64,000 nucleotides of DNA from Candidatus Electrothrix aestuarii. Its GTDB lineage: Bacteria > Desulfobacterota > Desulfobulbia > Desulfobulbales > Desulfobulbaceae. The notes beneath the pieces are model-generated. The model saw nothing but the letters and a program-made list of their open reading frames with translations. It had not been told where the DNA came from and ran no database searches. The position numbers and the translations under genes are program-made. Shown here piece by piece: positions 10,739 through 56,743 of this stretch; position 1 is the stretch's first letter; each line of letters opens with the position of its first letter. The DNA lies in assembly GCA_032595685.2 (NCBI GenBank), contig CP159373.1:4255821-4319820 (forward strand), read 5' to 3'.

Positions 10739-12384
10739 ACATAGAGCAGCTGACAAGCGAGCATCTGGCGGTCTGGACCGAGGCCCAGGTGGCAAAGGCT
10801 GCTGGGGGCAGAGGTCGTGGGAAGAAAAACGGGGATCTGCAAGCCTATGGGATCAAGAAACTGCGGGAGCTGATTTTGGAGCTGGCCGTGCGCGGGAAGC
10901 TGGTGCCGCAAGATCCAGCGGATGAACCGGCAGCGGTGTTGTTGGAGCGCATCGCGGCGGAAAAGGCGCGCTTGGTCAAGGAGGGGAAGATTAAGCGGCA
11001 GAAGAAGTTGCCGGAGATTGCGGAAGAGGAGAAGCCCTTTGCGTTGCCAGAGGGGTGGGAGTGGGTGTCTCTCTCGCAATTAGGAGATTTTTCTGGCGGA
11101 AAAACACCCAGTAAATCAAAAAGTATTTACTGGAATGGTGATGTCGCATGGGTAACGCCGAAGGACATGAAAGCCAAGTATATTTTTGATACTCAGGACC
11201 ACGTTACATCATTAGCGGTTGACGAAGGTTTAAGGCTTTATGAGAATGAGTCTATTCTCTTTGTAGTACGAAGCGGTATATTAAGGCACACATTTCCTGT
11301 TGCGATTGCTCAAACACCATGCACCGTCAATCAGGATTTAAAAGTGTTATCTCTATATAACAAGGAGTTGAGCTCTTATCTTTATCTGATGATGAAGGGG
11401 TTCGAGCGATATATCCTATCGAACTTGAGTAAAAAAGGCATGACGGTTGAAAGCATCATGTTTAGAGAGTTTTCATGCCATTACTTCATGTTACCCCCCT
11501 TAGCTGAACAACACCGCATCGTCGCCAAGATCGATGAACTCATGACCCTCTGCGACCGCCTGGAACAACAGCAAAGCGAGAGAGCCGCTACCCACCAGGC
11601 CCTGGTCAGCACCCTGCTGGATGCCCTGACCAACTCTGCTGATCACACGGAGTTTGCCGCAACCTGGCAACGCATCGCCGAGAACTTCGAGATCCTCTTC
11701 ACCACCGAGCAATCCATCGACCAGCTGAAACAGACCGTCCTTCAGCTTGCCGTGATGGGGAAGCTCGTTCCGTTTGACGGCGGTGCTACCGAATTTGTTC
11801 TAAAAGAGTTACTTGAGTTCGGACCTCGAAACGGATTCTCCCCGAAATGCGTTGAATACAAAACGAAGTTTAAGGTGTTGAAACTTGGTGCGACATCCTA
11901 TGGAGCTCTCAATACGGATGAAAGCAAATTTGTTGGTCAAGATATCCCTGCCAACTCGCACTTGCTGCTGAAGGAAGGAGACATTTTAATACAGCGCGGT
12001 AATTCAGCAAAATTTGTAGGCTCAAATGTCCTGATACGCCAGGATTACAGTAATTATATCTATCCTGACTTGATGATGAAAATCAGAGTCAACGATAAGG
12101 TCGAGCCTGAATTGTTATCGATTATTTTAATGGCACCGGATTCTAGGGAATTCATGTGGAATGCTATGACGGGAACGTCAGGAAGTATGCCGAAAATAAA
12201 TAAAAAGATCGTTGAGGCAATTCCTATTGTAATTCCACGAGATCGTAAAGTTCAACGTACTTTGGTTGAGAGAGTCGATGAACTCCTCACCCTCTGCGAC
12301 ACCCTCAAAAACCGCCTCCACCAGGCCCGCAGCACCCAGGTGCAGCTCGCTGATGCCCTGGTAGCGCAGGTGGTAGAGGCGTAG
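10735..12384 (+). CDS. hsdS: Type I restriction-modification specificity subunit (HsdS)
   Basis: The DNA-recognition subunit, 549 residues, starting at GTG. It has two target-recognition domains (about residues 110-255 and 350-505), each followed by a coiled-coil spacer with matching motifs: LAEQHRIVAKIDELMTLCDRLE and VERVDELLTLCDTLKNRL. The helical conserved regions are GC-rich while the two recognition domains are clearly AT-rich, a sign that recognition domains were exchanged by recombination. It ends just before a 59-base repeat. The remains of a second hsdS 3' end lie 0.9 kb downstream. Confidence 0.94.
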   Translation: MNIEQLTSEHLAVWTEAQVAKAAGGRGRGKKNGDLQAYGIKKLRELILELAVRGKLVPQDPADEPAAVLLERIAAEKARLVKEGKIKRQKKLPEIAEEEKPFALPEGWEWVSLSQLGDFSGGKTPSKSKSIYWNGDVAWVTPKDMKAKYIFDTQDHVTSLAVDEGLRLYENESILFVVRSGILRHTFPVAIAQTPCTVNQDLKVLSLYNKELSSYLYLMMKGFERYILSNLSKKGMTVESIMFREFSCHYFMLPPLAEQHRIVAKIDELMTLCDRLEQQQSERAATHQALVSTLLDALTNSADHTEFAATWQRIAENFEILFTTEQSIDQLKQTVLQLAVMGKLVPFDGGATEFVLKELLEFGPRNGFSPKCVEYKTKFKVLKLGATSYGALNTDESKFVGQDIPANSHLLLKEGDILIQRGNSAKFVGSNVLIRQDYSNYIYPDLMMKIRVNDKVEPELLSIILMAPDSREFMWNAMTGTSGSMPKINKKIVEAIPIVIPRDRKVQRTLVERVDELLTLCDTLKNRLHQARSTQVQLADALVAQVVEA

Positions 12385-37547: not shown

Positions 37548-37778
37548 ATGCTGGCAGAGGTTACCCCGCATGACGAAGATAAGTATGGAGTGCGTTACAC
37601 AGCGGATATTCCTGTTCAAGGGACGGAAGGACGTGAAGCTGTGGTGCGAACGGGCTGGATACTGCCTCACGGAAGCAGGGAGGCGCATCTGACAACACTG
37701 TATGTAGTAAGGGTAAAGCCGGACATGAAGGAGCCATTGCAAACTCCCCTGGTAGTTCTGCTGCAACTCCCTACGTAG
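37548..37778 (+). CDS. Short protein resembling the C-terminal part of a DUF6883-type domain
   Basis: A 76-residue frame 6 bases after the previous gene. DEDKYGVRYTADIPVQGTEG followed by VVRTGWILPHGSREAHLTTLYVV resembles the end of small DUF6883-like proteins (the pattern VRTxWxxxxGxxxxxLTTLY), from memory and not checked. The expected first half is missing, and the 3' end runs into a palindromic repeat array, so it may be a remnant. Confidence 0.35.
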   Translation: MLAEVTPHDEDKYGVRYTADIPVQGTEGREAVVRTGWILPHGSREAHLTTLYVVRVKPDMKEPLQTPLVVLLQLPT

Positions 37779-37837
37779 TTTGAATACAACTCCCTTAGGA
37801 GTTTGAAAACAAAGTCCCCGGGGACTTTCGTGAAAAC
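37742..37837. repeat. Array of four short palindromes at 23-base spacing
   Basis: Units begin at 37742, 37765, 37788 and 37811-37812: AACTCCCCTGGTAGTT, AACTCCCTACGTAGTT, AACTCCCTTAGGAGTT and AAAGTCCCCGGGGACTTT, with spacers such as TGAATAC and TGAAAAC. The last is a perfect 18-base palindrome. The spacing equals that of the array at 55432. Confidence 0.7.
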
Positions 37838-37877: not shown

Positions 37878-37985
37878 TTCCACAACGGTGGGCTATGTTC
37901 GCTTCGTCCCTCCGGGACGTAACTCCATGTCCCGTAGGGACAACCGATAATAGCCCCGTAATTTATCGCGGGGCGGGGTGCAGGG
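37878..37985. repeat. Hairpin interspersed repeat, variant copy
   Basis: Contains ACAACGGTGGGCTATGTTCG, CGTCCCTCCGGGACG, TGTCCCGTAGGGACA and the CCCCGTAATTTATCGCGGGG hairpin. Parts match the repeats at 6604 and 22838 but in a different order. It fills the space before the Roco gene. Confidence 0.55.
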
Positions 37986-38027
37986 ATCCCCTGCTCTTTT
38001 TACTAAAATGAGCAAGTACACTTGTTG

Positions 38028-40118
38028 ATGAAGGATAAAAGACTGCTTAACATAATAAAAAAGGCTAAAAAAAAGTCGTTACTGAACCTCAGCAGCAGAG
38101 GATTAACCGAACTGCCACCTGAACTTTTCCAATTGACCAACCTCATTAGGCTTGATCTCACCAACAATGAGTTAACCTCTCTACCATCGGAAATTGCTCA
38201 ACTGACCAATTTGGAAGAACTTAAACTCCGTAGTAACCACCTTACAACCTTGCCTCCGGAAATCTGCTGCCTAACTAATCTCAAACGGCTTGAACTTGAC
38301 CAGAATGAGCTTGACGAAATACCGCCAGAGATTAGCTTGTTGCCCAAGCTTCGCTGGCTTGACCTAAGCTACAACAAACTCACTAAACTGCCACCAGAAA
38401 TTGGTCAATTAATAACAAATGACGCATATATTCCTCTTTACGATAATCCCCTCACCTCCCCACCATCGGAAATTGCAGAACAGGGGCTCCAAGCCATCCG
38501 CCAATACTTCACCTCGCTCCAGCAAGAAGAACAGCCTCTCAACCAAGTCAAACTCCTTCTCATCGGCGAAGGCGCAGCTGGCAAGACCTCCCTGGTCAAG
38601 CAGCTCTTCGGCGAAGACTTTGACGCCCACGAGGACACCACCCACGGCATCAGTATCCGCAACTGGAAGGTGGAAGAGAACGGCGACACACCCCTGCGGG
38701 TCAACATCTGGGACTTCGGCGGGCAGGAGATCATGCACGCCACGCACCAGTTCTTTCTCTCCCGGCGCAGTCTCTACGTCCTGGTGCTTGACGGTCGCCG
38801 TGACGAACGCCCGGAGTATTGGCTCCGCCATATCGAGAGCTTCGGCGGTGACTCTCCCGTGCTGGTGGTCCTCAACAAGCAGGACAGCAACCCCTCATTC
38901 CAGTTAAACGATCCCTTCCTGCAGGCAAAGTACCCGGCCATCAGGGGTTTCTTCCGCACCTCCTGTGCCGACGGGCGCGGGATCGCCGAGTTCCGTTCCG
39001 CCCTGCTGCACGAGCTGGCGCAGGTGGAGATGATAGGCATCCGCTGGCCCGGCTCCTGGTTCCGGGTCAAGGAGCGAATCGAGCAGCTTGACCGACCGTA
39101 TATCAGCAGCGAGGAATACAGCGACCTCTGCGCGGAGGCGGGTATCAGCGAGCCGCAGAGCCGGGAGGTACTGGTGGACTTCCTCCACGATCTGGGCGCG
39201 GCAGTCCACTTCCGCGACTTTGTCCTCAAGGCCATGCACGTCCTCGACCCGGTCTGGGTGACCGAGGCGGTGTATAAGATCATCAATGCCGAGGAGGTGG
39301 CGGACGCCCGTGGCACCCTGGGCCTGAACAGCCTCGGCACGATCCTGCCCTACCGCAAGGACGAAAAGCTCTCCTGGCCCGAGTCCACCCATGTCTTTAT
39401 CCTGGAGCTGATGAAGAAGTTCGAGCTGTGCTGGGGCCTCGGCGAACAGGCCGTGCTCATCCCCCAGCTCCTGCCCGTGGCCGAACCCGCGTTCAGCTTT
39501 GATTACGCAAATGCCCTGGGCTTTGTCCTCCATTATCAGGACTTCCTGCCGCCCTCGGTCATGCCCCGCTTTCTGGTCAAGCGACACGGGCAGATCAGGA
39601 AAGGCCTCTGCTGGCGCACCGGGGTGGTACTGGAGGACAAGGAGAGCGGTACCGAGGCCGTGGTCAAGGCGGATCATGAGGCTCGGCGCATCTACCTCTG
39701 GGCTGGCGGCCCGCGCCGCAAGGAGTTCCTCACCTTTCTCTGGTTCTCCCTGCGGGCCATCAACGACAGCTTTGAGAAGCTCAACGTCAGCGAGTTGATT
39801 CCTATGCCGGATCAGCCAAGCGTCACTGTCAACTATAATACCATGCTGACGTATACAAAGAAGGGCATTGATGTATATATTCCTGATGGCTCAGAAAAGG
39901 AATACAGTGTGCGGGAGTTGCTTGGCTTGGTGGAGCCGGAAGGAGAAGATGAGATGCGTCAACTAATGCACAAGATAGAGGCCCACCTTGATGAGAAGGA
40001 ATCTGCAACCGAGGCTGCCGTCAGCCTATTTGAGCTGAAGCCGAATATAGCCGGGATCGGCGTGAACCTGAATGAGCTGTTCGGTAGGATTCTTGGCCGT
40101 GAGAAACGGAAGAAGTAA
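38028..40118 (+). CDS. LRR-Roc-COR (Roco) family GTPase
   Basis: A 696-residue bacterial Roco protein. Five 23-residue leucine-rich repeats (about residues 18-135, pattern LxxLxLxxNxLxxLPxEI) are followed by a Ras-of-complex GTPase: P-loop LLIGEGAAGKTSLVKQLFG near 178, WDFGGQEIMH near 225 and VLNKQDSN near 278. A COR dimerisation domain spans about 325-600. No kinase or TIR domain is attached. The repeat part is AT-rich, and from about 38550 the gene is strongly GC-rich, suggesting a composite origin. ATG 38028 was preferred to the TTG two codons earlier; the ribosome site is poor. The ABC ATPase gene starts 17 bases later. Confidence 0.92.
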   Translation: MKDKRLLNIIKKAKKKSLLNLSSRGLTELPPELFQLTNLIRLDLTNNELTSLPSEIAQLTNLEELKLRSNHLTTLPPEICCLTNLKRLELDQNELDEIPPEISLLPKLRWLDLSYNKLTKLPPEIGQLITNDAYIPLYDNPLTSPPSEIAEQGLQAIRQYFTSLQQEEQPLNQVKLLLIGEGAAGKTSLVKQLFGEDFDAHEDTTHGISIRNWKVEENGDTPLRVNIWDFGGQEIMHATHQFFLSRRSLYVLVLDGRRDERPEYWLRHIESFGGDSPVLVVLNKQDSNPSFQLNDPFLQAKYPAIRGFFRTSCADGRGIAEFRSALLHELAQVEMIGIRWPGSWFRVKERIEQLDRPYISSEEYSDLCAEAGISEPQSREVLVDFLHDLGAAVHFRDFVLKAMHVLDPVWVTEAVYKIINAEEVADARGTLGLNSLGTILPYRKDEKLSWPESTHVFILELMKKFELCWGLGEQAVLIPQLLPVAEPAFSFDYANALGFVLHYQDFLPPSVMPRFLVKRHGQIRKGLCWRTGVVLEDKESGTEAVVKADHEARRIYLWAGGPRRKEFLTFLWFSLRAINDSFEKLNVSELIPMPDQPSVTVNYNTMLTYTKKGIDVYIPDGSEKEYSVRELLGLVEPEGEDEMRQLMHKIEAHLDEKESATEAAVSLFELKPNIAGIGVNLNELFGRILGREKRKK

Positions 40119-52617: not shown

Positions 52618-52682
52618 GGCGCTTTACATTGCACATTATCAGCAATTTCCCCTTATTTTATTCACATATTGTTATCGATACT

Positions 52683-55376
52683 ATGACAGAAAACAACACC
52701 TCGGAACATACTTCGGGCAAATACGACCTTCCCAAGGCCTACGAATTTGAAGAAGTAGAACAGCGCTGGTACAAATACTGGCTGGAACACAAAACCTTCA
52801 GCGCCCAGATGGAGGAAGGCAAGGATGCCTTTTCCATTGTTATCCCTCCACCCAATGTTACCGGTGTGCTCCATATCGGCCATGCCCTGAACAACACCCT
52901 CCAGGACCTGCTCACCCGCTATCATCGGATGAAGGGAGATAATACCCTCTGGGTTCCAGGTACAGACCACGCAGGCATTGCCACCCAAAACGTGGTGGAA
53001 CGTCAGCTGGCAACTGAAAAGAAAACCCGTCATGACCTGGGTAGAGACAAATTCATAGAACGGGTCTGGCAGTGGAAAACCGATAAGGGCGGTACCATTA
53101 TCAACCAACTCAAACGCATGGGAGCCTCCTGCGACTGGGACCGTGAGCGTTTCACTATGGATGAGGGCTTATCCAAAGCCGTGCGCGAGGTCTTTGTTCG
53201 TCTCTATGATGAAGGGCTAATCTACAAGGGCGATTATATCGTCAACTGGTGCCCCCGTTGTCATACTGCCTTAGCGGATGATGAGGTGGAACATGATCCC
53301 ACTAAGGGTAAACTCTACCATCTCCGCTATCCCTATGCCGATGGTTCCGGCTCCGTGGTGATCGCTACCACCCGCCCGGAAACCATGCTCGGCGATACAG
53401 CTGTGGCTGTGCATCCTGATGATGAGCGCTATGCTGGGCTTCAGGAGATCGGTATTCATCTGCCCATTGTTGACCGCACCATTCCTGTGGTCTTAGATCA
53501 TCATGTACAACGGGAATTCGGAACCGGTGCCCTCAAGGTTACCCCAGCCCATGATCGTGATGACTATGAGATCGGGCTGCGTCATGATCTGGAGAGAATC
53601 AAGATCATGGACGACCACGGCATCATGAATGAGCAGGCTGGTAAATACGCAGGGATGGACCGCTTTGCCTGTCGTGAGCAGATCATCAAAGATCTGGACG
53701 AGATGGGTTTCCTGGACAAGATCGAAGACTACGATCATGCAGTGGGAAAATGCTACCGCTGTGCCACAGTGGTCGAGCCCACCACCTCCAAGCAATGGTT
53801 TGTCTCAGTACGTCCCTTGGCGGATAAGGCGGTGGCAGCAGTTCGGGAAGAACGAATCAAACTCTACCCGGATACCTGGTACAACACCTTTTATTCTTGG
53901 ATGGATAATATTCGCGACTGGTGTATCTCTCGCCAGATCTGGTGGGGACATCGTATCCCGGCCTGGACCTGTAAGGAATGCGGCAAGCTGATGGTGGCCC
54001 TGGAGACTCCTGATGCCTGTCTTATCTGCGGCAGTTCGGATCTTGAGCAGGAAACCGATGTCCTGGACACCTGGTTTTCCTCAGCTCTCTGGCCTTTTTC
54101 CACCCTGGGCTGGCCTGAGCAAACCAAGGAACTCGCTACCTTCTACCCGACCTCAGTGCTGATCACCAGCTTTGACATCCTCTTTTTCTGGGTTGCCCGC
54201 ATGATGATGATGGGCCTCCATTTTATGGATGAAGTGCCCTTTCACGATGTCTACCTGCATGCCTTGGTGCGTGATAAGCACGGCAAGAAGATGTCCAAGT
54301 CTACCGGCAATGTTATTGACCCCCTGGATATGATTGCCCAGTACGGTACTGATGCCTTCCGCTTTACCCTGACCGCCTTTGCTGCCCAAGGCCGGGAAAT
54401 CAAGATGGACGAGGAGCGCATTGACGGCTACCGCCGCTTTATCAATAAACTGTGGAACGCGGCCCGCTTTGCCCAGATGCACATCAAGGATTGCGAACCC
54501 GGCATTGTGGCGGCAGCAGAAAAGCCCACTGAGCTCGCCCTGCCCCACCGCTGGATCCTGAGCCGTACTGACGCAACCATCCGTGACGTGCGCAAGGCTC
54601 TGGATGGCTATGATTTCAATCTGATCGCCTCAGCCATCTACCAGTTCACCTGGCATGAGTTCTGCGATTGGTATGTGGAGTGGATTAAGGCCGACCTGTT
54701 CTCAGATGATGCAACAAAACGTGATCAGGCCAGAGGCGTCCTCCTCTGCGTTCTGGAAAATATCCTCAAAATGCTCCATCCCATCTGCCCCTTTGTTACC
54801 GAAGAAATCTGGAGCCAGCTGCCCGGCGAACGCGGCACCATCATGCTGGAAGCCTTCCCTGAGACCAATGAGGCCTGGCAGGATGCAGAGGCCGATCAAT
54901 CCATGCAGTTGCTGATGGATGTAATCTCTGCTACCCGCACCATTCGCTCTGAGGCAGATGTCCATCCTTCTGCCAAGGTCCACGCCTCCATTCTCTGCGC
55001 TGATGCGGGTAAACGGGATATCCTGGATGCCTTCAGTGATTCGCTCTGTTCTATGACCCGCTCAGAATCTCTGACCATCATGGAAACAGGCACTGTCCCC
55101 GATGATGCTGGCCATATTCTCACCGAAACGGGCGTCGAGGTCTTTGTTCCGCTCAAAGATTTGATTGATGTGGAGGCAGAGCTGGACAAGTTGGCCCGTG
55201 ACCGCAAGAAAATTGAGCAGGAGCTCAAACGGGTACAGGGCAAGCTGGGGAATGAAAAATTCCTCAATAACGCACCAGATGATGTGGTGGAGAAAGAACG
55301 TGGTAAGTTGGAGGAACTGGAGATTCGTTTGGCGAAGAATGAGGAGTCAAGTGAGAGGATGGAGAAGTTAGGATAA
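52683..55376 (+). CDS. valS: Valine--tRNA ligase
   Basis: An 897-residue class I aminoacyl-tRNA synthetase. The HIGH site is PPPNVTGVLHIGHAL near residue 56, and the KMSKS loop is HGKKMSKSTGNVIDP near 535. The editing domain (about 200-350) includes TTRPETMLGDTAVAV. The C-terminal coiled coil (about 830-897, with ELDKLARDRKKIEQELKRVQ) that grips tRNA is intact. ATG 52683 begins MTENNTSEHTSGKYDLPKAY; an in-frame ATG at 52629 would add 18 residues in the presumed leader. Confidence 0.97.
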   Translation: MTENNTSEHTSGKYDLPKAYEFEEVEQRWYKYWLEHKTFSAQMEEGKDAFSIVIPPPNVTGVLHIGHALNNTLQDLLTRYHRMKGDNTLWVPGTDHAGIATQNVVERQLATEKKTRHDLGRDKFIERVWQWKTDKGGTIINQLKRMGASCDWDRERFTMDEGLSKAVREVFVRLYDEGLIYKGDYIVNWCPRCHTALADDEVEHDPTKGKLYHLRYPYADGSGSVVIATTRPETMLGDTAVAVHPDDERYAGLQEIGIHLPIVDRTIPVVLDHHVQREFGTGALKVTPAHDRDDYEIGLRHDLERIKIMDDHGIMNEQAGKYAGMDRFACREQIIKDLDEMGFLDKIEDYDHAVGKCYRCATVVEPTTSKQWFVSVRPLADKAVAAVREERIKLYPDTWYNTFYSWMDNIRDWCISRQIWWGHRIPAWTCKECGKLMVALETPDACLICGSSDLEQETDVLDTWFSSALWPFSTLGWPEQTKELATFYPTSVLITSFDILFFWVARMMMMGLHFMDEVPFHDVYLHALVRDKHGKKMSKSTGNVIDPLDMIAQYGTDAFRFTLTAFAAQGREIKMDEERIDGYRRFINKLWNAARFAQMHIKDCEPGIVAAAEKPTELALPHRWILSRTDATIRDVRKALDGYDFNLIASAIYQFTWHEFCDWYVEWIKADLFSDDATKRDQARGVLLCVLENILKMLHPICPFVTEEIWSQLPGERGTIMLEAFPETNEAWQDAEADQSMQLLMDVISATRTIRSEADVHPSAKVHASILCADAGKRDILDAFSDSLCSMTRSESLTIMETGTVPDDAGHILTETGVEVFVPLKDLIDVEAELDKLARDRKKIEQELKRVQGKLGNEKFLNNAPDDVVEKERGKLEELEIRLAKNEESSERMEKLG

Positions 55377-55431
55377 AGTGCGTTTTTGATTCAGCTGCCG
55401 GATTTCTTCCGAAGCAGTCACCCTCACGAAA

Positions 55432-55569
55432 CATCCTGGCATGTACCACCAATACATGCCAGGATGTACCGTCTATACATGCTGGCATATATTCCCCGAA
55501 CATGCCGGGATATAATCCCGATACATGCAAGCATGTATTGACAAAACATACCTGCATATACTCCCCAAG
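55432..55569. repeat. Tandem array of six 23-bp palindromic units
   Basis: Six units in exact 23-base register start at 55432, 55455, 55478, 55501, 55524 and 55547. Each starts CAT and has a short palindrome such as CATGCCAGGATG, CATGCTGGCATAT, CATGCCGGGATAT or CATGCAAGCATG, then a 7-9 base variable spacer. The array lies just after valS and before the converging FAD reductase gene. Confidence 0.8.
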
Positions 55570-55635
55570 CTCCCTGCCTTGCTGCCCCTCAGAATAAAAC
55601 GTCCATCAATGTTGATTTTACTCTTTCTCTTACAC

Positions 55636-56676
55636 TTAAGAAATGGAAGCCATCTCAATCGCCTTGAATTTGAGAATCCGAGATCGAAGAAAAAAAATGA
55701 GCAGTTCCATTAGCATAAAAGAATAGGCAACATGACTCCGGGAAAGCCTGACTAAACGGAGGTGCTGTTGATGTCTGCGAATAAGGGCTGACAACTCCTT
55801 CATATCTGCACCCGGATCAAGAATCTGACGCGCCACAGCTTGCCCGGAAACAACAGCAGGATAAATTCCTTCTCCTGTTAGTCCAGAAGCCAATCCAGCA
55901 GCATCTCCAATCAGCCATACGGGCCCAAAGGAATGTCCTCGATAATCGTAATTAATTAATGCAGCCTGACAATATAACTCATCCAGCTGAAAACCAAGAT
56001 TTCTTGCCCAGCGAAGGAGATTACGTTTTAATCTCCCTACAGACACCTCTCCCTCAGGAGTGTATGCCCCTATAGAAATGGTGTTTTTATGAGGGAAAAC
56101 CCACGCATACCCACAACCAAACCTCCTGGTATGCATATGCCATTCCATCCGATCATAATCTCCAGGAATTTGAAAATTAATACCTGGTCCTCGATCAATG
56201 ATTGGCACGCCAAGACTCCGTCTAACCAAGGAGTTGGCCCCGTCGGCTCCAACAAGCTGTGAGCAGCGAATCTCCTTGGTAGCGCCTTTCTGTACCGCCG
56301 TGACCTGAAGTCCATCTATAGCTGTGACTTTCGTTCCTGTGAGTATTTCCGCACCAGCCTGTTGCGCCTGTTGCATCATCCTTTGCCCCAAAGTTCTCCG
56401 ACTGACAGTGGCAATGATAGGATTCTTTTCCCGTATGATAACTCGTTGGCAAACAGTATAAACATACTGTTCTCGGAAACGCCTTTCCATAAACTCATCC
56501 GGCATCAGTTGCAACAGACCGTGCCATGTTACGCCGCCTGCACATACTTTAGGACCAATCTCCTCCTGTCGCTCAAGCAATACAACTTGACGTCCCTGCT
56601 CAGCAAGAACTTTGGCACAGGCAAGCCCTGCTGGACCAGCACCTATAATGAGAATGTCTGTTGAAATATTCGACAT
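55636..56676 (-). CDS. Geranylgeranyl reductase-family FAD oxidoreductase
   Basis: A 346-residue flavoprotein of the geranylgeranyl-reductase/ChlP group, which reduces double bonds in isoprenoid chains. FAD motifs: DILIIGAGPAGLACAKVLAE at the N-terminus, LVGADGANSLVRRSLG near 150 and WLIGDAAGLASGLTGEGIYP near 270. The Cys-containing KVCAGGVTWHG block near 45 is typical. I chose ATG 56676; a TTG four codons upstream is possible. It lies downstream of the glycan genes on the same strand, 67 bases from the sugar transferase gene, so a role in polyprenyl carrier maturation is possible (inference). Confidence 0.85.
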   Translation of the reverse strand: MSNISTDILIIGAGPAGLACAKVLAEQGRQVVLLERQEEIGPKVCAGGVTWHGLLQLMPDEFMERRFREQYVYTVCQRVIIREKNPIIATVSRRTLGQRMMQQAQQAGAEILTGTKVTAIDGLQVTAVQKGATKEIRCSQLVGADGANSLVRRSLGVPIIDRGPGINFQIPGDYDRMEWHMHTRRFGCGYAWVFPHKNTISIGAYTPEGEVSVGRLKRNLLRWARNLGFQLDELYCQAALINYDYRGHSFGPVWLIGDAAGLASGLTGEGIYPAVVSGQAVARQILDPGADMKELSALIRRHQQHLRLVRLSRSHVAYSFMLMELLIFFLRSRILKFKAIEMASIS

Positions 56677-56743
56677 GAGGAGTGTCAAAGAAAAAATAAT
56701 GAGGAGAAACGAGTAAGCTCACAGCAGATTGAAAATCTCAGCG

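What the first reader, a model, noticed from the sequence alone, without database searches (positions are those of the whole stretch)
55432..55569. Six-unit 23-bp palindromic tandem array behind valS
Exact 23-base register over 138 bases with CATGC-type palindromes and variable spacers. It is not CRISPR: spacers are only 7-9 bases. With the 37742 array it suggests a class of arrays defined by spacing and self-complementarity and not by sequence, perhaps protein-binding or replication-slippage products.
Basis: seen in the sequence. Interest (0 to 1): 0.52.

Follow-up and report, generated by a model that had tools for sequence, protein, structure and literature searches.

The report
Orphan HU-protein operator-type palindrome array
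The six-unit repeat behind valS is a stray copy of a DNA control array that cable bacteria carry, in many sequence versions but mostly on the same 23-base grid, in front of a large family of HU-like DNA-binding protein genes.

Summary
In detail: six ACATNCNNGNATGT dyads at exact 23-bp steps (55431-55559), not matched in 1000 shuffles. The genome is inferred to be a cable bacterium (Ca. Electrothrix). The array is an orphan copy of one upstream of an HU-domain + DUF4469 ("HU-HIG") gene 254 kb away. That family has up to 28 matches per genome in 12 of 13 cable-genus genomes, and none in 60 others of the family. Upstream of 59 full-length HU-HIG genes the strongest lag is exactly 23 bp in 51. The palindrome differs between paralogues; 9 of 12 protein pairs at least 80% identical share it. 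All 59 have an exact TTGACA at -112..-60, 50 of them at -85..-90; of 34 clear arrays, 31 are in register with it, on a grid equal to the usual -35/-10 spacing. Most likely mechanism (inferred): HU-HIG dimers bind successive dyads and, spreading by 23 bp, cover the promoter. The valS copy lacks promoter and gene: a trans site or a relic. Binding is not shown; three of those 12 pairs carry unlike arrays.

The parts
55431..55559 (.). Six-unit 23-bp palindromic array (ACATNCNNGNATGT dyads at 55431, 55454, 55477, 55500, 55523, 55546); orphan: no TTGACA-type promoter found within 160 bp on either side and no HU-HIG gene beside it
55560..55590 (+). Right flank (CTCCC...CTCCCTGCC...) resembling the flank of the cognate array, up to C1:4057664; the similarity stops before the cognate promoter
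52629..55376 (+). valS, ends 54 bp before the array
55636..56688 (-). FAD-dependent oxidoreductase gene, convergent with valS; the array lies in the 259-bp convergent gap, so it is not in a promoter position here
37742..37828 (.). Second orphan array of the same class, different palindrome (AACTNCCNNGGNAGTT), 4 units here and 7 in relative G063; a similar palindrome fronts an HU-HIG gene in G062 (L214); no such HU-HIG gene was found among those sampled in G000

Best explanation
Cable bacteria carry a lineage-specific family of HU-HIG genes (HU-like DNA-binding domain + Ig-like DUF4469). Most of those examined form a stand-alone unit: 3-10 dyads of 14-16 bp repeated every 23 bp, a sigma70-type promoter (usually TTGACA-N17-TAnnnT), a leader of roughly 50 bp, then the gene (shown by sequence). 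In most clear arrays the dyad grid, extended downstream, falls on the -35 and -10 hexamers, because 6+17 = 23 bp is also their spacing (shown by sequence). Inferred: HU-HIG dimers bind successive dyads, one per 23 bp, cooperatively, and spreading by one or a few steps covers the promoter, so each paralogue represses itself through its own palindrome. Arrays grow, shrink and homogenise by whole units (one 3-unit difference seen directly), which lets each palindrome drift while spacing is held. The valS array is a copy of the C1:4057504 array that left promoter and gene behind; it is either a trans site for that HU-HIG protein (titration or local DNA structuring) or a relic.
For: Combined score: 51 of 59 upstream regions have their strongest lag at exactly 23 (by identity alone 51, by palindrome correlation alone 32); mean identity at lag 23 is 0.43 against about 0.25 at other lags, with a harmonic at 46 (0.405); downstream of the same 59 genes lag 23 shows 0.254. 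50 of 59 arrays exceed a shuffled null. Palindromic arrays (score 8 or more) upstream of 37 of 69 HU-HIG genes or fragments at period 23, 0-2 at ten other odd periods, 0 of 67 downstream. Control genes of 300 aa or more in 18 sampled stretches of G000: 2 of 115 with an array score, 6 of 115 with best lag 23, 10 of 115 with TTGACA in -112..-60, against 59 of 59 for HU-HIG. Best promoter score 9 or more of 12 in 59 of 59 upstream segments and 4 of 59 downstream ones. Register: of the 34 genes (of 59) whose array scored 8 or more, 24 have last dyad centre to -35 equal to 2.5 or 3.5 modulo 23, and 31 lie within 1.5-6.5. Protein pairs at least 80% identical share the palindrome in 9 of 12; at 45-50% in 0 of 554. 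The HU-HIG family was found only in the two cable genera of 257 class genomes. HU and DUF4469 domains: Pfam hits and collinear PDB 4fmr. Whole-unit indel and decay of unit similarity with distance.
Against: No binding or expression data. Three of 12 protein pairs at least 80% identical have unlike palindromes: L207/L179 (83%, similarity 0.29), L223/L179 (81%, 0.41), L223/L198 (80%, 0.50), so the array may not be read by its neighbour protein, or very few residues decide it. Same-palindrome pairs are predicted about equally well by identity in the HU part (AUC 0.987) and in the Ig part (0.989), although the rank correlation over all pairs is somewhat higher for the HU part (0.148 against 0.067). 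Some arrays are barely palindromic (L198, L202); 8 of 59 genes have another best lag; 25 of 59 had no array of score 8 in the register test and 3 of 34 were off register. Three distant HU-HIG genes in G000 showed no TTGACA-N17-TAnnnT, and one of them (L254) no array. G063 keeps the valS array but no second ACATG-type array, hence no HU-HIG gene with this palindrome, was found there; the tract is almost identical between G000 and G063, so recent transfer could explain that. The valS array is not in a promoter position. Dyad centres about 25, 48 or 71 bp upstream of the -35 would also suit an activator.
Confidence: 0.6

Rival explanations
1. The valS array is a functionless relic: a piece of an HU-HIG control region copied to a neutral gap by recombination.
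For: No promoter or gene beside it; convergent gap; present in G063 without a cognate gene found; several other orphan sites are short or decayed (L069, L074, L077, L079, L081 give no chain); L070 shows an array beside a truncated HU-HIG gene.
Against: All six units and the exact 23-bp step are kept; about a dozen orphan sites of this palindrome type occur in cable bacteria, two of them shared between species with turned-over units (L069/L083; L073/L087).
Confidence: 0.35
2. A REP- or MITE-like mobile repeat moved by a transposase in trans.
For: Same array type at non-orthologous places; flanks of some copies share short C-rich stretches.
Against: I saw no common outer end in the flanks; units lack the GTAG/CGTC tag; the arrays track a gene family that is not a transposase; palindromes differ between arrays. 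No clean empty site could be compared and no search for transposases or RAYT genes was made.
Confidence: 0.07
3. The arrays act as RNA hairpins (terminator, attenuator or RNA stability element).
For: Adjacent units can pair (units 1 and 2 of this array are exact reverse complements).
Against: In HU-HIG loci the arrays lie upstream of the predicted promoter; unit self-complementarity (0.779) is hardly above that between neighbours (0.754), as a shared dyad consensus predicts; fixed register with the -35 has no obvious role for RNA. No Rfam match in window 30000-64000.
Confidence: 0.08
4. The arrays bind a different, unknown factor that activates or silences HU-HIG promoters, one factor for all, reading spacing and dyad shape and not sequence.
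For: Spacing and register are nearly constant while sequence varies; some 80%-identical proteins have unlike arrays.
Against: Within an array and between close relatives the sequence is mostly conserved, which a shape-only reader would not need.
Confidence: 0.2

Closest known systems
HU-HIG / DUF4469 proteins (Pfam PF18291, PF14848, PF14734; PDB 4fmr)
   Same: The protein fronted by the arrays has the same HU-like plus Ig-like layout. A lineage-specific expansion of HU domains in Bacteroidetes, linked to recognition of invasive DNA, is recalled from a 2017 paper that my searches did not list.
   Different: Six homologues examined (four on plasmids of one Parabacteroides strain, two on unannotated gut phage contigs whose gene starts I estimated) have no 23-bp array upstream; the cable-bacteria family is a separate expansion with arrays.
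Phage lambda OR/OL operators (recalled)
   Same: About 17-bp dyads 23-24 bp apart centre to centre, next to a promoter, cooperative dimers.
   Different: 3-10 units instead of three; a predicted HU-type and not a helix-turn-helix protein; many paralogues with different dyads on one spacing; grid equal to the usual -35/-10 spacing.
Lrp- or ArgR-type repeated sites (recalled)
   Same: Regularly spaced dyads bound by oligomers.
   Different: Different protein fold; I know of no paralogue series with sequence-diverse arrays.
REP/BIME repeats (RAYT-associated; partly recalled)
   Same: Intergenic, palindromic, dispersed.
   Different: No GTAG/CGTC tag, exact 23-bp tandem spacing, linked to HU-HIG genes; RAYT genes were not searched for.

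Membership tests
23-bp HU-HIG-linked palindromic array class (defined here) | dyads of about 16 bp at 23-bp steps, several units | tested here: met
23-bp HU-HIG-linked palindromic array class (defined here) | same palindrome as an array upstream of an HU-HIG gene in the genome | tested here: met
   C1:4057504 array, gene C1:4057786
23-bp HU-HIG-linked palindromic array class (defined here) | in-register TTGACA promoter and HU-HIG gene beside the array | tested here: not met
   absent at 55431 and at 37742; both are orphans
lambda-type operator array | dyads spaced 23-24 bp beside a promoter | tested here: met
   for the cis arrays, predicted promoters; not for the valS copy
lambda-type operator array | cooperative binding by the adjacent gene's product | not testable with these tools
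   needs a binding assay
CRISPR array | constant repeats with unique spacers of about 25-40 bp | tested here: not met
   spacers 7-9 bp, repeats variable
REP element (GTAG/CGTC-tagged) | GTAG or CGTC tag at one end of the palindrome | tested here: not met
   unit sequences; definition from title and abstract start of PMC3733652 in search listings
REP element (GTAG/CGTC-tagged) | RAYT transposase in the genome | not tested
   no search was made
Plasmid iteron array | adjacent replication initiator gene | tested here: not met
   neighbours are valS and an FAD oxidoreductase; on the 5.1-Mb contig
Transposon end | transposase or target duplication at the ends | tested here: inconclusive
   the two flanking genes are not transposases; no syntenic empty site in five other Electrothrix genomes

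The most novel reading that the evidence does not exclude
Cable bacteria run many parallel, mutually insulated HU-Ig/array pairs. Each paralogue reads its own palindrome 'code', on one 23-bp protein lattice that is shared with the -35/-10 spacing of the target promoter; codes diversify by whole-unit amplification, and orphan arrays such as that behind valS extend each paralogue's reach in trans. This would be a diversified, sequence-coded chromatin or silencing system built on the HU fold.
Probability: 0.35. Interest if true: 0.9.

Novelty: new variant of a known kind. Interest (0 to 1): 0.8.

Why it matters
HU-fold proteins are usually seen as non-specific or single-site DNA benders (recalled). 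A bacterial family in which many HU-type paralogues each sit behind a different palindrome array, mostly on one 23-bp lattice in register with the promoter, would be a natural experiment on how protein-DNA specificity splits after duplication. It would also give cable bacteria, which are multicellular and hard to manipulate, a testable large regulatory or DNA-silencing family that my literature searches did not turn up.

Tried and rejected
Empty-site comparison behind valS: five other Electrothrix genomes with a readable valS end (G058, G059, G060, G062, G064) have unrelated sequence there (the G060 contig ends shortly after valS), so boundaries could not be defined. Rfam: no match in window 30000-64000. 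NCBIfam gave nothing for the cognate protein, and PADLOC nothing for the 20 HU-HIG members. The structure prediction was poor (mean pLDDT 37, single sequence) and was neither used nor searched. That the HU domain alone tracks the palindrome was not clearly supported. HU-HIG relatives were not found in plasmid, phage or viral collections with the cable-bacteria query. A partner gene common to all HU-HIG loci was looked for downstream and not found; seven pairs of loci share a downstream gene. Literature: the listings of searches show no title on these arrays or on DUF4469 in cable bacteria; in PMC10926707, PMC10030654 and PMC10580974 I saw only passages found by term search, with 'palindrom' absent in all three. 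Hits set aside: L028 and L029 gave no chain; L039 (a viral contig) gave two four-unit chains with steps of 22-24 in an ATGCAT-rich stretch, which I took for low complexity and did not follow. Five non-cable genomes with one loose pattern match each were treated as chance. L115, an A/T-rich hit of the sample scan, was treated as low complexity. Score thresholds were set by me while exploring, not beforehand.

Full report
Observation. The window contains six ACATNCNNGNATGT dyads starting at 55431 and stepping by exactly 23 bp, in the 259-bp gap between the convergent genes valS and an FAD oxidoreductase. Shuffled sequence did not reproduce it: 0 of 1000 dinucleotide shuffles of the gap, maximum score 7 against 14. 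The array at 37742 has the same geometry with another palindrome.

Where it comes from. The window lies in a 5.11-Mb single-contig genome. Its genus g1 includes G060, whose contig C76 has the same length, 44,850 bp, as the Ca. Electrothrix gigas contig QYLO01000022 that carries the same array; genus g12 includes G053, whose contig C1 has the length of an Electronema aureum contig. So g1 is inferred to be Ca. Electrothrix and g12 Ca. Electronema, the two cable-bacteria genera. With up to 3 mismatches, 10 of 13 genomes of the two genera match, seven of them more than once... counting matches: G000 9, G053 13, G054 2, G056 20, G057 8, G060 5, G063 5, and one each in G059, G062, G064; 5 of 60 other family members match once each. 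My own estimate of the chance expectation for those 60 is about six.

Shape of this palindrome family. Scanning 22 loci gave 17 chains of five to eight units, the outermost often weak; five loci (L069, L074, L077, L079, L081) gave none at that threshold. 9 of 17 chains contain the step series 23-23-22-23-23. The window's array is 23 throughout. The loci are mostly non-orthologous, with shared sites at one gap that I read as lon-ftsY (L069/L083; gene names are my reading), at L073/L087, and upstream of one gene in both genera.

The gene. The second own copy (C1:4057504) lies about 150 bp upstream of a 359-aa gene, and arrays in Electronema lie upstream of its homologues. The family matches HU-type DNA-binding domains and DUF4469: of 20 members, 11 match PF14848, 11 PF14734 and 6 PF18291 at E up to 0.01, while the cognate member itself matches none at that level (PF14848 at E 0.1). 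PDB entry 4fmr is collinear with the profile over positions 26-223 (E 0.0013). I call it HU-HIG. Matches occur in 12 of 13 cable-genus genomes, 2 to 28 per genome (some are fragments, and the search scored at most 28 candidates per genome), and in 0 of 60 other genomes of the family. A profile finds it in 12 of 257 genomes of the class. PF14734 hits 3 of 395 genomes sampled from the phylum, the two beyond G000 below the family's cut-off.

The class. Upstream of HU-HIG genes lie arrays with quite different palindromes, for example TTCCACTATAGTGGAA, AGCATGCCTGCATACT, TCGATCGTACGATCGG and TCCATGCCAGCATGGA. In 69 genes or fragments, 37 have a period-23 array (score 8 or more) within 450 bp upstream, 0-2 at ten other odd periods, and 0 of 67 downstream. 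In 59 full-length genes the strongest lag is exactly 23 in 51 by the combined score and by identity, and in 32 by palindrome correlation alone; 50 of 59 exceed a shuffled null. Of 115 control genes, 2 have an array-like score (one a true orphan array, one inside a neighbouring reading frame) and 6 have best lag 23. A sample of 400 kb of the own genome, two of whose 20 stretches were chosen because they held known arrays, gave four hits, all at period 23; one of the four is A/T-rich low complexity. 400 kb of a non-cable relative gave none. Three distant HU-HIG paralogues of G000 (22-26% identical to L214) are mixed: L257 and L258 have arrays on the upstream side, L254 has none, and none of the three showed a TTGACA-N17-TAnnnT promoter.

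Promoter register. All 59 genes have an exact TTGACA between -112 and -60 (10 of 115 controls), 50 of them at -85 to -90. In 53 of 59 the best-scoring promoter is TTGACA-N17-TAnnnT; promoter scores reach 9 or more in 59 of 59 upstream segments and 4 of 59 downstream ones. For the 34 genes whose array scored 8 or more (25 of 59 did not enter), the distance from the last dyad centre to TTGACA is 2.5 or 3.5 modulo 23 in 24, and 1.5-6.5 in 31. Some of the 34 are close relatives; setting aside eight such repeats by hand leaves 23 of 26 in that range. Since 6 + 17 = 23, both promoter hexamers then lie on the array's grid. This is the strongest hint of mechanism: a protein lattice with 23-bp steps, nucleated on the dyads, would reach the -35 and then the -10.

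Evolution. Units are more alike when close (0.784 for neighbours, 0.577 seven apart), and G000 differs from G063 at the 37742 array by exactly three units with identical flanks. That is whole-unit gain or loss. Among the 50 genes with arrays above the null, protein pairs at least 80% identical share the palindrome in 9 of 12, those at 70-80% in 6 of 15, at 60-70% in 4 of 67, at 50-60% in 4 of 496, at 45-50% in 0 of 554 and at 40-45% in 0 of 81. Against simple co-evolution, L207 and L179 are 83% identical throughout and have unrelated arrays.

What the valS array is. It matches the cognate array plus about 30 bp of its flank and then stops before the promoter. No HU-HIG remnant lies in the window by a 59-protein panel. 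I read it as an orphan copy, either a trans site or a relic. The convergent gap argues against regulation of valS by initiation. G063 has the same array without a matching HU-HIG gene found, though that tract is nearly identical between the two genomes and may have moved recently. Of the orphan arrays tested for a promoter, L026 keeps one close to register; the window's two do not have one.

Known or new. Six Bacteroidetes or gut-phage relatives of the protein have no 23-bp array; this is a small sample, four of them from one strain. Literature searches list nothing on these arrays. The kind of thing, a DNA-binding protein gene behind an operator array, is known. Its realisation here, with HU-type paralogues, sequence-diverse arrays mostly on one spacing and a promoter on the same grid, I did not find described.

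Noticed in passing
37742-37828: Second orphan array (AACTNCCNNGGNAGTT), 4 units here, 7 in G063; difference exactly 69 bp; related arrays at G000:C1:2345572, G063 and G062.
   Followed up: yes
about 37895-37980: CGTCCCTCCGGGACG / GTCCCGTAGGGAC pair plus GCCCCGTAATTTATCGCGGGGC, a different dispersed repeat of REP-like look, also next to the L077 array.
   Followed up: no
38022-40118: LRR-Roc-COR GTPase gene downstream of the 37742 array.
   Followed up: no
L026:6654-6759 (Electronema KV): Array with a TTGACA promoter close to register kept, but no HU-HIG gene follows; another gene does, and a look-alike of that gene follows an HU-HIG gene in L201 (by eye).
   Followed up: partly
L082:5411-6331: A gene with a ParB-like nuclease domain (PF08857) follows the cognate HU-HIG gene in the own genome.
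   Followed up: no
L198 and L202 (G056): 23-bp direct repeats, 0.90 and 0.83 alike, that are hardly palindromic, upstream of HU-HIG genes.
   Followed up: no
L001:1454-2300 (window about 55350-56200): Tract almost identical between G000 and G063 while the adjacent end of valS differs at many sites; looks like recent recombination.
   Followed up: no
L078, L114: Orphan arrays at the start of a phosphorylase-superfamily gene (L078) and upstream of a 949-aa open frame (L114), possible trans-regulated promoters.
   Followed up: no
L039 (viral contig IMGVR_UViG_3300001486_000019), about 10930-11120: Two four-unit chains of ATGCAT-rich palindromes with steps of 22-24 bp; taken for low complexity.
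   Followed up: no
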